From an uncultured Lysobacter sp. (GTDB lineage Bacteria; Pseudomonadota; Gammaproteobacteria; Xanthomonadales; Xanthomonadaceae): a stretch of DNA of 64,000 bases. The stretch covers positions 21,567-85,566 of the forward strand of contig CAMLID010000009.1 of assembly GCA_946480055.1 (NCBI GenBank), written 5' to 3'. A program made the translations under genes and the position numbers. Of the stretch, positions 9,037-30,448 are shown in pieces. Position 1 is the stretch's first letter, and each line of letters begins with the position of its first letter. The notes under the pieces are model-generated. The model saw only the letters and a list, made by a program, of their open reading frames with translations, did not search any database and was not told the DNA's origin.

Positions 9037-9317
9037 GGGTAGGAGCGGCGTAAGCCGCGACCCGAACCCGCACGCATCGACGACTTGCCGATTCCGCGAC
9101 AGCCTGCGGCTGCCCGCGCGATGATCCTCGCGCGGACCGCCGAACTGGCGCGGTCGCGGCTTACGCCGCTCCTACCCTGATCGCGGCGAACTGCCGGCGC
9201 CGCTCGACCGAGCCGGTCGGGCCGCTTTCTGTGAGAGCGACGTAAGTCGCGATCGCGTGAGTCGGGGCTTGCGTTGTATCCGAACTGCGCGAATCGCGGC
9301 TCACGCCGCTCCCACAG
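9037..9317. repeat. Two inverted REP pairs
   Basis: First pair: 9037-9062 with 9152-9177, 26-bp perfect inverted repeat. Second pair: about 9229-9257 with 9289-9317, imperfect, one arm having the GCGAC/GTCGC stem variant and the other GCGGC/GCCGC. They fill the spacer between two convergent genes (acetyltransferase and DUF4832 protein); I see no gene in it. Confidence 0.85.
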
Positions 9318-9338
9318 TAGTTGGCCTCGGTCCGTGGT

Positions 9339-10805
9339 TCAGCGCGCCGCCACCACATCCACCGCACCCAAGGTCAAGCGCCCCGTGCTGTCGCGGCCGA
9401 CGTTCTGCGGCACGATGCCACGACGTCCCGGCCAGCTGTCGGCGAGCGCGAGCTTGAGCGTGTAGCGTCCCGGCGCCAGCGCCGCCGGCACGCTGGCCTG
9501 CAGCTCGCGGCTCTGCGGCGATCCCGGCAGCAGGCCGGTGAGCGGATAGTCGAGCGCCGACTTGGCCAGCACCACGCCGCCCGCGTCCAGCCAATGCAGC
9601 TCGGCCTGATAGACCTGGTACAGCGGCGCCACGCCGGTGTTCTCGATGCTCAGGCTCAGCGGCAGGCTCGCACCGGCCGCGACCTGATCGGCCCAGGCCG
9701 CGCGCCGCACGGTGAACTCGTAGCCCAGTGCGCGCTTGATGCTCAGCACCTTGGCCCGGAACGCCGCGGTGCCGGTGTTCTCGTGCTGGCCGGCCGGGCC
9801 CAGCCAGGTGAAGTGGTAGTCGCGCACCAGCTTGACGATGTCGGCGGGGCGGTCGGTCCACAGCTTCTTCTGGTCCGCGTACGGACTTTCGCCGCCGATC
9901 GGATTGAGCTGCCAGTTCTGGCGCGCGGCCGGCACTTCGTTGCGATAGCCCCATTCCAGGTTCCACCAGCCGGTGTCGTCGCAGCGCTTGAGCCTGGGCG
10001 AATAGGCGCTGCACATCGCGGTGTAGGACGGGAAGAAGTCTTCGCTGAAGCCGAAGCTGGCGCCGCCGACATCGCTGGCGCGCGCGTAACGCGTGTGCAG
10101 CGGCGTCTGCGCGAAGTTGTTGGTGTAGGCGTCGCGCACCAACGCGCGGGTGGTCGCGTCGGGCTCGTAGCTGGGGCAGCCGGAGGTGTGCCACTCGCCC
10201 CAGAAGCCGAGCAGGCCGACATGCACCGCGGTGATGCGCGGGTCGCCGTCGTAGCGGCGCGCGAACGCGCGCACGAACTGCTGCAACTGCTCGCGCATCG
10301 CCGGCGTGTTGTAGTCCGGCGCCACGCCGGGGCCGTCGCCGCCGCAGTTGCTGTAGGCGTGGCCGGGGATGTTGAGCGGGGCCTGGCCGAGGAACTTGGG
10401 ATAGTCGCGCTCGGGCTGCTCGCCGTCGTAGTAGTAATGAATGTTGTTGCCGACGCTGTCGGGGTAGTCGGCGACCGGGCGCAGCACGAAGGTCGCGTTC
10501 GGATCCTCGGCCAGGATCGGCGCGAGGTGGCGTTGTTCGAAGCCGGCCCAGTCGTACTGCTCGTCGGCGGTTTCGACTTCGCGCCAGGGCAGGTAGATCT
10601 GGTAGATCGAGGCGCCGTAGTGGTTGTCGGGCAGGCCGCCGTCGGCGCCGACCGTGGTGCCCCAGAGCAGGAAACCGCGGTGCGGGTTGGACAGGTCGTC
10701 GTTGCTTTGGGCGGGGAGCAGTTCACCGGCGCGCGCGGGCGCGAGCAGGGCGGTCAGCGCGATCGCGACGGCGAGGGCGGCGGGTGCTACGGGTCGCAGG
10801 TCCAT
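9339..10805 (-). CDS. Secreted DUF4874/DUF4832 protein (glycosidase-like barrel)
   Basis: A 488-residue protein with signal peptide (VAPAALAVAIALTALLAPARA). The first part of the mature protein (about 30-200) has the NPHRGF opening and the YLPWREVE and DWAGFEQRHLAPIL segments that match DUF4874. Residues about 200-370 contain HVGLLGFWGEWHTSG, GFSEDFFPSY and ENTG, resembling DUF4832. The last 110 residues look like an Ig-like beta-sandwich (LSIENTGVAPLYQ, GRYTLKLALADSWPGR). The family is considered a probable TIM-barrel glycosidase relative from the FWGEWH strand-end acidic residue, but no substrate is established. Secretion is inferred. It is a single gene. Confidence 0.85.
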   Translation of the reverse strand: MDLRPVAPAALAVAIALTALLAPARAGELLPAQSNDDLSNPHRGFLLWGTTVGADGGLPDNHYGASIYQIYLPWREVETADEQYDWAGFEQRHLAPILAEDPNATFVLRPVADYPDSVGNNIHYYYDGEQPERDYPKFLGQAPLNIPGHAYSNCGGDGPGVAPDYNTPAMREQLQQFVRAFARRYDGDPRITAVHVGLLGFWGEWHTSGCPSYEPDATTRALVRDAYTNNFAQTPLHTRYARASDVGGASFGFSEDFFPSYTAMCSAYSPRLKRCDDTGWWNLEWGYRNEVPAARQNWQLNPIGGESPYADQKKLWTDRPADIVKLVRDYHFTWLGPAGQHENTGTAAFRAKVLSIKRALGYEFTVRRAAWADQVAAGASLPLSLSIENTGVAPLYQVYQAELHWLDAGGVVLAKSALDYPLTGLLPGSPQSRELQASVPAALAPGRYTLKLALADSWPGRRGIVPQNVGRDSTGRLTLGAVDVVAAR

Positions 10806-28385: not shown

Positions 28386-30197
28386 TCAGGCGTGGTCGAG
28401 CAGATGCTGCAGCACCGCCTCGCCATAGCGGTCGAGCTTGCTGGCGCCGATGCCGGGGATGCCCGACAGGTCGTCGAGGTCGTCCGGTGCGGCTTCGGCG
28501 ATCGCGCGCAGGGTGGCGTCGTGGAAGATCACGTAAGCCGGCACGTTCTGTTCGCGCGCGGTCGTCGAGCGCCACTCGCGCAAGGCGTTGAAGCGCGCCA
28601 GCGAGGCCGGATCGAGATCGATCATCGGCGCTGCGGTGGCGCCGCCGCGGGTCTTGCGGCTGCGTGCGGTCTTGGGCTGTTCGGTGCGGAAACGCAGGTC
28701 GCGCTCGCCGCGCAGCACCGGGCCGCTGTCGGCGGTCAGACGCAGTGCGCCGTGGCGTTCGATGTCGGCTTCGAGCAGGCCGCCGGCGACCAGTTGCCGG
28801 AACACGCTGCTCCACTGACGCGCGTCCAGGTCGGCGCCGATGCCCCAGGTGCTGAGGCGGTCGTGGCCGAACTTGAGCGCCTTCTCGGTTTCGACGCCGC
28901 GCAGCACGTCGATCACGTGGCCGGCGCCGAAGCGCTGGCCGGTGCGGTAGACGCAGGACAGGGCCTTGCGCGCGGCTTGCGTGCCGTCCCAGCTTTGCGG
29001 CGGGTCCAGGCAGTTGTCGCAATTGCCGCAGGCGCCCGGGTGCGGTTCGCCGAACCAGCCCAGCAGCGACTGGCGCCGGCACTGGGTGGATTCGCAGTAG
29101 CCGAGCAGGGCGTCGAGCTTGCGCAGCTCCAGACGCTTGCGCTCCTCGCCGGCCTCGCCCTGCTGGATCAGCTGGCGCAGATTGACCACATCGCCCAGGC
29201 CGTAGCAGAGCCAGGCCTCGGCGGGTTCGCCGTCGCGGCCGGCGCGGCCGGTTTCCTGGTAGTAGCCCTCGATCGACTTGGGCAGGTCGATGTGGGCGAC
29301 GAAGCGCACGTCGGGTTTGTCGATGCCCATGCCGAAGGCGATGGTGGCGACCATCACCACGCCGTCCTCCTGCAGGAAGCGGCGCTGGTGGGCGGCGCGC
29401 GAGGCCGCGTCCATGCCGGCGTGATAGGGCAGGGCGCGGATGCCGGCTTCGACCAGTTGCGCGGCCACTGCGTCCACGCGCCGGCGCGAGAAGGCGTAGA
29501 CGATGCCGCTGTCGCCGCGATGGGCGGACAGGAAGTCCAGCAGCTGGCGGGTGCCGTTGTCCTTGTGGACCACGCGGTAGCGCAGGTTGGGGCGGTCGAA
29601 GGAGCTGACGAAGCGGCGCGCGTCCTCCAGGTTCAGGCGCTCGGCGATCTCGCGCTGGGTCGGGGCGTCGGCGGTCGCGGTCAGGGCGATGCGCGGGATG
29701 TCGGGCCAGCGCTCGTGCAGGATCGTGAGTTCGCGGTACTCGGGCCGGAAGTCGTGGCCCCATTGCGAGACGCAGTGGGCCTCGTCGATCGCGAACAGGG
29801 CGATCGGGGCGCGATCGAGCAGGGACATGAAGCGCCCGGTCAGCAGGCGCTCGGGGGCGACGTAGAGCAGGTCGAGCTCGCCGGCCAGCAACTGGCGCTC
29901 GACTTCGGCCGCGGCCGCGGCGTCCAGGGTGGAATTGAGGAAGGCCGCCTGCACGCCGAGCTGGCGCAGGGCTTCGACCTGGTCCTGCATCAGTGCGATC
30001 AGCGGCGAGACCACGATGCCGCAGCCGTCGCGCAGCAGCGAGGGCAATTGGTAGCACAGCGATTTGCCGCCGCCGGTGGGCATCAGCACCAGGGCGTCGC
30101 CGCCGTCGCTCACGTGCTGGACGATCTGCGCCTGCTCGCCGCGGAAGTCGGGATGGCCGAAAGTTCGGCGCAGCAGGTCGAGGGCGTGGTCTGGCAT
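28386..30197 (-). CDS. recQ: ATP-dependent DNA helicase RecQ
   Basis: A 603-residue superfamily 2 helicase for recombination and replication-fork repair. Helicase core: FRGEQAQIVQHV (Q region), MPTGGGKSLCYQLP (motif I, about 39-52), FAIDEAHCVSQWGHDFRPEY (motif II with the RecQ loop), LTATAD (III), AFGMGIDKPDVRFVAH and YYQETGRAGRDGEPAEAWL (V, VI). The zinc-binding RQC part has CEST...CRR...CGNCDNC. A winged helix and a C-terminal HRDC domain (FNALREWRSTTAREQNVPAYVIF to GASKLDRYGEAVLQHL) complete it. Confidence 0.97.
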   Translation of the reverse strand: MPDHALDLLRRTFGHPDFRGEQAQIVQHVSDGGDALVLMPTGGGKSLCYQLPSLLRDGCGIVVSPLIALMQDQVEALRQLGVQAAFLNSTLDAAAAAEVERQLLAGELDLLYVAPERLLTGRFMSLLDRAPIALFAIDEAHCVSQWGHDFRPEYRELTILHERWPDIPRIALTATADAPTQREIAERLNLEDARRFVSSFDRPNLRYRVVHKDNGTRQLLDFLSAHRGDSGIVYAFSRRRVDAVAAQLVEAGIRALPYHAGMDAASRAAHQRRFLQEDGVVMVATIAFGMGIDKPDVRFVAHIDLPKSIEGYYQETGRAGRDGEPAEAWLCYGLGDVVNLRQLIQQGEAGEERKRLELRKLDALLGYCESTQCRRQSLLGWFGEPHPGACGNCDNCLDPPQSWDGTQAARKALSCVYRTGQRFGAGHVIDVLRGVETEKALKFGHDRLSTWGIGADLDARQWSSVFRQLVAGGLLEADIERHGALRLTADSGPVLRGERDLRFRTEQPKTARSRKTRGGATAAPMIDLDPASLARFNALREWRSTTAREQNVPAYVIFHDATLRAIAEAAPDDLDDLSGIPGIGASKLDRYGEAVLQHLLDHA

Positions 30198-30362
30198 GAC
30201 GCTAGTGTAACGAGCGCCGACGTTATGGCCCCTAAGCGGGAGGCGCGGTCCGCTGTAGGAAGTCGCCGCGGTCGGCGTCAGAGCCCTGCTATCCGGGCGG
30301 CGTGCGCTGCGGCCGGAGCCGCCGAACAGGGGCGACGATGGCTGGCCGACCCGCGAAACCGC

Positions 30363-30448
30363 CCCTGTGGGAGCGACGTAAGTCGCGATCGACCCGGGAC
30401 CGCTGCAGCGCGGGCGCTCGGATCGCGACTTACGTCGCTCCCACAGGG
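30363..30448. repeat. Inverted REP pair, GCGAC stem variant, perfect 28-bp arms
   Basis: Arms 30363-30390 and 30421-30448 are perfect reverse complements, 30 bp apart. Both arms carry the GCGAC-GTAA-GTCGC stem rather than the usual GCGGC/GCCGC. It sits between dps (3' end) and the recQ promoter side. Confidence 0.92.

What the first reader, a model, noticed from the sequence alone, without database searches (positions are those of the whole stretch)
9037..30448. REP hairpins show compensatory stem changes and constant GNRA-type loops
Copies are of two stem types, GCGGC/GCCGC and GCGAC/GTCGC: the paired bases change together. Loops are GTAA, GTGA, GCAA or GCGA, all fitting GNRA. Paired change plus loop constraint means the folded form is selected, either as RNA or as single-stranded DNA recognised by a REP transposase. 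About 20 copies lie in this window, and inverted pairs with 26-30-bp arms occur at 9037/9152, 28030/28158 and 30363/30421.
Basis: seen in the sequence. Interest (0 to 1): 0.7.

Follow-up and report, generated by a model that had tools for sequence, protein, structure and literature searches.

The report
Transposase-linked DNA hairpin repeats in Lysobacter
The repeats are copies of a known kind of small bacterial mobile DNA hairpin; they keep their folded shape by paired changes, most likely because a single-strand DNA transposase recognises the fold, and the RNA-like loop rule seen in the window does not hold in related systems.

Summary
The window holds 22 near-perfect copies (plus one degraded) of GTRG-GA-GCGRC-GYRA-GYCGC-GA; all 22 have an intact stem (18 G-C, 4 A-T at pair 4) and a GYRA loop. 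In 20 genomes of G001's genus, pair 4 is G-C in 8721 copies, A-T in 1043, G.T in 62 and A.C in 63; about 1964 mismatches are expected if the sides were independent. These are REP/REPIN elements. In 61 of 80 loci of the REP-associated tyrosine transposase (RAYT), matching REPs stand on opposite strands on the two sides of the gene. On the RAYT tree pair 4 needs at least 19 changes. GNRA is too narrow: RAYT-flanking REPs also carry GTCA, GCCA, GGCA, TTCA, TATA and CTTG. Loop bases 1 and 4 are G..A, T-A or C-G in 63 of 64, with base 3 free. G.T is no commoner than A.C, so RNA is not favoured; a single-stranded DNA substrate of RAYT is. Stems differ at 5 of 360 sites against 163 of 998 in flanks between two relatives, but window copies are often decayed in G001. 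A new member of a known kind, with a lead that REPIN arms change in concert.

The parts
1812..2273 (+). Head-to-tail array of seven REPs (1812, 1887, 1963, 2024, 2100, 2176, 2252) with GTGG and GTAG heads; G001 has two REPs at the orthologous place
8318..8339 (+). REP GTAG-GA-GCGGC-GTAA-GCCGC-GA; the G001 orthologue is decayed (3 departures)
8433..8454 (-). Degraded REP: stem GCGGC/GCCAC, loop GCCA; the G001 orthologue has an intact stem and loop GTCA
9037..9062 (+). REP arm 1 (GTAG type, GTAA loop), inverted with 9152-9177
9152..9177 (-). REP arm 2 (GTAG type, GTAA loop)
9231..9252 (+). REP GTGA-GA-GCGAC-GTAA-GTCGC-GA (A-T stem type)
9294..9315 (-). REP GTGG-GA-GCGGC-GTGA-GCCGC-GA
10972..10993 (+). 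REP (GTAG, GTAA) of an inverted pair; G001 orthologue degraded
11037..11058 (-). REP (GTAG, GTGA), partner of 10972; G001 orthologue degraded
22784..22805 (+). Single REP (GTAG, GCAA) after a ybgF/cpoB-like gene; degraded in G001
28030..28062 (+). REP arm 1 (GTGG, GTGA), inverted with 28155-28187
28155..28187 (-). REP arm 2 (GTGG, GTGA)
28208..28229 (+). REP GTAG-GG-GCGGC-GCGA-GCCGC-GA
28346..28367 (-). REP (GTAG, GCAA)
30363..30390 (+). REPIN arm 1 (GTGG, A-T stem type, GTAA) between a recQ gene and a Dps-like gene; G001 has the G-C stem type here
30421..30448 (-). REPIN arm 2 (GTGG, A-T stem type, GTAA); same stem type in G001
48909..48930 (+). REP GCGG-GA-GCGAC-GTGA-GTCGC-GA; G001 orthologue has the intermediate G.T state (GCGGC/GTCGC)

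Best explanation
The repeats are REP elements, many of them in inverted pairs (REPINs) and clusters, of the GTRG-GA-palindrome-GA type served by group-3 RAYT (TnpAREP) enzymes. Inferred mechanism: when a strand is single-stranded, the REP folds into a 5-bp hairpin that RAYT recognises by head, stem and loop and cuts nearby; the REPIN is the unit that spreads. Recognition keeps the stem paired but leaves pair 4 free to switch among G-C, A-T and C-G. It needs loop bases 1 and 4 to close on each other (G..A here, T-A or C-G in sister systems), a pyrimidine at base 2 as a rule, and little at base 3. Shown here: pairing, covariation, the loop pattern, RAYT association in relatives, and conservation in place between two relatives. 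Inferred: binding, cleavage, mobility, and the sheared form of the G..A pair.
For: Pair 4 in 20 genomes: 8721 G-C, 1043 A-T, 62 G.T, 63 A.C; about 1964 mismatches expected if independent, 125 seen. In 64 RAYT-flanking REPs chosen without asking for pairing (37 distinct), 96.8% of cells pair against 80.0% shuffled and 18-44% slid; covariation score 0.431 against 0.120, 0 of 500 shuffles as high; 4 pairs with changes on both sides (9 of 500 as high) and 9 further pair types (21 of 500). On the best RAYT tree pair 4 needs at least 19 changes and pair 2 at least 7; 17 for pair 4 among 62 paired cores. Of 80 RAYT loci (the best of 200), 74 have a recurring REP nearby, 66 on both sides, 61 on opposite strands across the gene (this finder asks for a paired stem). 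Three enzymes tested, of both loop types, pass the cut-off of NCBIfam NF047646, REP-associated tyrosine transposase, and the family profile matches E. coli TnpAREP 4er8. Loop class clusters on the tree: 15 changes against 34.2 shuffled, 0 of 200. Orthologous copies G013 to G028: stem 5/360, flanks 163/998, p=1e-17, genome average 5.3%; reverse direction 2/329 and 120/916. Published tests agree: a stem mismatch seriously diminished REPMb cleavage, and its loop needs T12, T13 and A15 while base 14 is free (PMC8266576, section 22 read).
Against: No RAYT gene lies in the window, and its own assembly is not held. G001 has one PF01797 match, a RAYT flanked by GTGG-type REPs only (4 of 4), so its GTAG subfamily has no enzyme of its own there. 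Two of 20 genomes have almost no copies of this type (G007: 5, G008: 6). Window copies are often decayed in G001: 3 of 8 clusters have no copy at <=2 mismatches there, and in 7 aligned copies the stem differs at 5 of 69 sites (pair 4 at 4 of 14, two of them the double change at 30367) against 39 of 161 in flanks and 3.3% genome-wide. The G013/G028 sample is small, asks for near-consensus copies in the first genome, and leaves out 31 of 67 REPs (22 in clusters of more than two, 2 for length, 7 without anchors). Independent contrasts for pair 4 on well-supported branches number only 5, all the same way, p=0.06; many forks of the tree are unresolved. In REPMb, mutating the fourth stem position lowered cleavage, whereas here it is the freest pair. 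No binding or movement was measured.
Confidence: 0.86

Rival explanations
1. RNA hairpin: the GNRA-capped stem is selected in transcripts, as a 3'-end stabiliser, terminator or protein site.
For: In the window 22 of 22 near-perfect copies have GNRA loops. REP clusters are enriched between convergent genes, 33 of 90 against 195 of 959 intergenic regions, p=0.0007 (home-made gene calls, stretches partly picked around copies). Between co-directional genes 65 of 103 copies have the GTRG strand on the coding side, p=0.01 without correction for clustering.
Against: G.T and A.C intermediates are equally rare (62 and 63, p=1.0; reversed-pattern controls find 5 and 15), though G.U pairs in RNA. The purine at loop base 3 fails in 8 of 61 RAYT loci, and other RAYT lineages use T-A or C-G loop ends. 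No Rfam hit except a tRNA.
Confidence: 0.07
2. Mutational copying: paired changes arise by template switching inside the hairpin or by copying between REPIN arms, with little selection.
For: At 30363-30448 the two arms share the loop in each genome: GTAA/GTAA in the window and G001, GCGA/GCGA in G013, GTGA/GTGA in G028; the stem type is shared in three of the four. In 14 orthologous REPINs 3 changes are mirrored in both arms, permuted mean 0.64, 19 of 2000 as high.
Against: In 11 of those 14 REPINs no change is mirrored. Within G001, stem type is no more alike between outward-facing arms (23 of 32) than chance (0.73). Copying alone would let both arms drift together, but head, spacer and stem stay nearer to consensus than the flanks between G013 and G028. 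Loop class clusters by RAYT lineage.
Confidence: 0.2
3. Founder effect: two stem types are two amplified master copies, and covariation reflects one ancient double change.
For: Within one genome the A-T type is a minority (75 against 629 in G001), and REP subfamilies differ in head and flanks. Window copies decay in G001.
Against: Both stem types occur with both head types in G001 (A: 39 G-C and 7 A-T; G: 35 and 10). At least 19 changes of pair 4 on the RAYT tree. A double change in place at 30367 between window and G001. Stems are conserved at orthologous sites of G013 and G028.
Confidence: 0.06

Closest known systems
REP elements of Pseudomonas and Xanthomonas RAYTs (Nunvar et al. 2010, PMC2817692; passages seen)
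   Same: GT(A/G)G head, GA inserted between head and palindrome, GC-rich palindrome, RAYT gene flanked by inverted REPs. The paper already notes that palindromes are preserved in REP variants, 'suggesting selection for complementary mutations'.
   Different: Other stems and loops, e.g. X. campestris GTAGGAGCGCGCTCGCGCGCGA; the word Lysobacter is counted 0 times in it.
GTAG-1/GTAG-2 REP families (Di Nocera et al. 2013, PMC3733652; passages seen)
   Same: Unpaired dinucleotide between GTAG and stem, conserved 3-bp motif on the other side, complementary changes listed by IUPAC code
   Different: The word Lysobacter does not occur in its main text
Marinomonas REPMb / group-3 REPtron (PMC8266576; section 22, discussion part 1 and passages read)
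   Same: 5-bp perfect stem two bases from GTAG, 4-base loop whose ends act as a pair, base 3 free, mismatch lowers cleavage
   Different: Loop TTTA with T-A ends; here G..A ends. A T-to-G change of the first loop base greatly reduced REPMb cleavage, so the Lysobacter enzymes presumably read the loop differently. The fourth stem position matters in REPMb and is the freest here.
REPINs of P. fluorescens SBW25 (Bertels and Rainey 2011, PMC3116915; passages seen)
   Same: Inverted REP doublets forming a long hairpin; compensatory changes described in the spacer
   Different: Other sequence family and host

Membership tests
REP/REPIN of the GTRG-GA (group-3 RAYT) type | GT(A/G)G head followed by GA, then a GC-rich palindrome | tested here: met
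   20 of 22 near-perfect window copies have GTAG or GTGG (11+9); 91 of 92 in the G001 sample. The search pattern contained this head, with up to 2 departures allowed
REP/REPIN of the GTRG-GA (group-3 RAYT) type | More than 100 copies per genome, dispersed between genes | tested here: met
   780 copies in G001; 18 of 20 genomes have 291-785 GCGGC-type copies, 2 have 5-6. Intergenic placement from a home-made gene caller
REP/REPIN of the GTRG-GA (group-3 RAYT) type | Inverted doublets and clusters | tested here: met
   48 inverted and 39 same-strand neighbour pairs within 200 bp among 134 G001 copies
REP/REPIN of the GTRG-GA (group-3 RAYT) type | RAYT gene in the genome, flanked by matching inverted REPs | tested here: met
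   Met in relatives: 61 of 80 loci, G001 RAYT L017. In the window's own genome it cannot be tested; none in the window
REP/REPIN of the GTRG-GA (group-3 RAYT) type | Cognate RAYT binds and cuts the REP strand as ssDNA | not testable with these tools
   Needs purified protein
REP/REPIN of the GTRG-GA (group-3 RAYT) type | Mobility of the unit | tested here: inconclusive
   Copy number differs at orthologous sites (7 against 2 at 1812-2273; no REP at <=5 mismatches in G026 at the place of 30363), but no excision was observed
GNRA-capped RNA hairpin | Purine at loop base 3 | tested here: not met
   218 of 226 G..A loops in fetched Lysobacter stretches fit, but 8 of 61 RAYT loci carry GTCA, GCCA or GGCA
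GNRA-capped RNA hairpin | G.U tolerated more than A.C in the stem | tested here: not met
   62 G.T against 63 A.C; reversed-pattern controls 5 and 15
GNRA-capped RNA hairpin | Known RNA family | tested here: not met
   Rfam 15 at gathering score: only a tRNA in the window

The most novel reading that the evidence does not exclude
REPIN arms are rewritten in place and in concert: hairpin-templated copying moves head, stem and loop changes from one arm to the other, so part of the 'compensatory' pattern is a copying signature that keeps each REPIN a good substrate for RAYT. At 30363-30448 three loop states and two stem states occur at one homologous site, and the two arms share the loop in all four genomes in which the REPIN was found.
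Probability: 0.22. Interest if true: 0.6.

Novelty: new member of a known kind. Interest (0 to 1): 0.36.

Why it matters
REP hairpins are widespread repeats in bacteria, and which of their bases the transposase reads has been tested for only a few enzymes. Dozens of RAYT/REP systems, mostly of one order, act as a natural mutagenesis series. They say which stem pair is free (pair 4), which loop bases are tied (1 with 4) and which is free (3), in a form that can be tested on oligonucleotides. They also warn that a GNRA-looking loop in DNA repeats need not mean RNA.

Tried and rejected
RNA family: Rfam gave only a tRNA. GNRA as a rule: rejected on loops beside RAYT genes. Head base 3 (A/G) and tail base (C/T) looked like a paired change (window 11 G-T and 11 A-C). 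A with C and G with T is not Watson-Crick, and it marks two subfamilies with different upstream bases (CT before GTGG 62 of 70, GG before GTAG 47 of 63), so I took it as subfamily linkage and not pairing. Arm-to-arm concordance within G001: strong for head and tail (27 and 30 of 32 outward pairs), modest for loop (22 of 32 against 0.47), none for stem type (23 of 32 against 0.73), so concerted change stays a lead. The hairpin finder asks for pairing, so pair counts from it are biased; I repeated the count without that demand. In one search, 106 of 138 distinct 22-mers had five Watson-Crick pairs; the 32 others may include frames that the fixed 14-nt core misreads. One search pairs orthologues only where the target still looks like a REP; one search drops that condition. 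Searches extracted RAYT proteins wrongly (wrong strand for some, too narrow a motif) and were replaced. An argument from equal copy numbers on the two contig strands was dropped, since genes lie on both. Literature: no paper on Lysobacter REPs in the listings (search listings only; an open-licence library); I made no search aimed at the closing-pair rule. The DNA-hairpin loop search gave no source that I used for a sheared G.A loop in DNA, so that part rests on recall.
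Full report
Observation. The window holds 22 copies with at most two departures from GTRGGAGCGRCGYRAGYCGCGA and one with three, 13 of the 23 inside the stated span. All 22 stems are intact, 18 with G-C and 4 with A-T at pair 4, and all 22 loops are GYRA. The three named inverted pairs are there. As single DNA strands the single hairpins folded here lie between -4.9 and -7.0 kcal/mol and the 30363-30448 pair at -44.7, z -10.2. The window's own assembly is not held. The nearest genome, G001, is 96.7% identical over 61 kb, and its RAYT is identical to that of Lysobacter sp. Root76 (L117), so the window is a Lysobacter or close kin (inference).

Genus-wide test. With the rest of the stem fixed, pair 4 is G-C 8721, A-T 1043, G.T 62, A.C 63 in the 20 genomes searched; the reversed patterns find 17, 0, 5 and 15. 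Independence would give about 124 A-T and 1964 mismatches. G.T and A.C are about equal (p=1.0 before taking off the controls); in RNA one would expect G.U to be tolerated. Equal numbers are what fresh mutations on either side give before they are lost (inference). 8396 of 8721 GCGGC-type copies have GYRA loops. Breaks at the other pairs were not counted across the genus.

Transposase link. PF01797 matches occur in 17 of 21 genomes searched, G001 included, and not all of them are REP-type enzymes. Three enzymes tested (L017 and L032 of the GCGRC type, L014 of the TTCA type) pass NCBIfam NF047646, and the family profile matches E. coli TnpAREP 4er8. A genome-contig scan gave 80 loci, the best of 200, most of them titled as Lysobacteraceae or Rhodanobacteraceae genera. 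In 74 a recurring REP lies beside the gene, in 66 on both sides and in 61 on opposite strands across it. Loop class clusters on the RAYT tree (15 changes against 34.2 shuffled, 0 of 200), though the tree is short (148 columns, 26 of 77 inner branches open).

What is constrained. I took one REP per locus by head, spacers and repetition only, without asking for pairing (64 loci). Then 96.8% of cells pair against 80.0% in shuffles and 18-44% in slid controls; covariation 0.431 against 0.120, none of 500 shuffles as high; pairs changed on both sides 4 (9 of 500 as high), further pair types 9 (21 of 500). Pair 4 needs at least 19 changes on the best tree, pair 2 at least 7, pair 3 at least 5, pair 5 at least 4, pair 1 at least 1, unpaired states included. 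Five contrasts on well-supported branches all agree (p=0.06). Loop bases 1 and 4 are G..A in 34, T-A in 24, C-G in 5 and T..G in 1; base 2 is T 49, C 9, A 4, G 2; base 3 is C 26, A 22, G 8, T 8. So the apparent GNRA loop is one form of a closing pair with an inner dinucleotide. This agrees with the Marinomonas work, where loop bases 12 and 15 behave as a pair, base 13 is needed and base 14 is free (PMC8266576 section 22); there, however, the fourth stem position matters. That the G..A pair is sheared is recalled chemistry, not tested.

In-place evolution. Between G013 and G028 (94.7% identical) 36 orthologous REPs, chosen as near-consensus in G013 only, differ at 5 of 360 stem sites, 8 of 141 head sites, 13 of 72 inner-loop sites (12 transitions, 1 transversion) and 163 of 998 flank sites. 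The reverse direction, 33 REPs, gives 2 of 329 and 120 of 916. Stems are thus kept in place, below the genome average of 5.3% (p=0.0002), while the loop interior drifts at the flank rate. 31 of 67 REPs were left out in the first direction (22 in clusters of more than two, 2 for unequal length, 7 without anchors). The window tells less well: 3 of its 8 clusters have no copy at <=2 mismatches in G001, and in 7 aligned copies the stem differs at 5 of 69 sites against 39 of 161 in flanks, above the 3.3% genome average. So maintenance is not absolute.

A site history. At 30363-30448 the window has GCGAC-GTAA-GTCGC in both arms; G001 has GCGGC-GTAA-GCCGC and GCGAC-GTAA-GTCGC; G013 has GCGGC-GCGA-GCCGC twice; G028 has GCGGC-GTGA-GCCGC twice; no REP was found in G026. 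Part of the spacer and the flanks align. This is a compensatory double change in place, and the arms agree in loop in all four. Over 14 REPINs the mirrored changes number 3 against 0.64 permuted (19 of 2000), with 11 showing none. Within G001 the arms agree in head and tail but not in stem type beyond chance. Concerted rewriting is a lead, not a result.

Two subfamilies. In G001, GTGG copies are preceded by CT (62 of 70) and followed by T (68 of 70); GTAG copies are preceded by GG (47 of 63) and followed by C (46 of 63). G001 has one PF01797 match, its RAYT L017, flanked by GTGG-type REPs only (4 of 4); in G012 a RAYT (L019) is flanked by GG-GTAG-type REPs (4 of 4). The GTAG subfamily in G001 may be an orphan of a lost enzyme (inference).

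Position. Home-made gene calls put 33 of 90 REP clusters between convergent genes (background 195 of 959) and 10 between divergent ones (188 of 959). Insertion tolerance at gene ends or a secondary role at 3' ends would both give this.

Known or new. REP/RAYT co-evolution, the GA insert, inverted REPs around RAYT genes and preserved palindromes are published (PMC2817692, PMC3733652, PMC3116915; passages seen). The Lysobacter set, the count of compensatory changes on a RAYT tree, the closing-pair rule and the G.T/A.C comparison were not seen in the searches made (listings), none of which was aimed at the last two. I file it as a new member of a known kind.

Noticed in passing
window 13183-13363: A 50-nt near-copy (76%) of the ruvA start lies 131 bp upstream of the real one, with a dispersed ~73-bp repeat (13231-13304, two small hairpins by eye) between. 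The G001 alignment lacks the extra 131 bp, and the repeat recurs at about 76-88% identity in G012, G013, G026 and G028. It may be a small element that rewrote a gene start.
   Followed up: partly
window 1812-2273: Seven REPs head to tail, all on one strand, at 61-76 bp spacing, with GTGG and GTAG heads mixed; the orthologous G001 interval has two on opposite strands.
   Followed up: partly
L014, L016, L025, L027 and L195: A second RAYT clade in Lysobacter with its own REP type GTGG-GA-GGGGC-TTCA-GCCCC-GA and close variants; G007, nearly free of the GCGRC type, carries such an enzyme (L014). Its copies were not counted.
   Followed up: partly
G026 stretch orthologous to window 27890-28390: A unit of about 210 bp with four REP-like hairpins repeated in tandem about three and a half times, including a degraded form GTGC-GG-ACGAC-GTAA-GTCGG.
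   Followed up: no
window 23686-23741: Tandem run of CGATTCC units between genes, partly in a gap of the G001 alignment.
   Followed up: no
window 59118-59658: Tandem repeats inside a long open reading frame, seen as many overlapping matches to G001.
   Followed up: no
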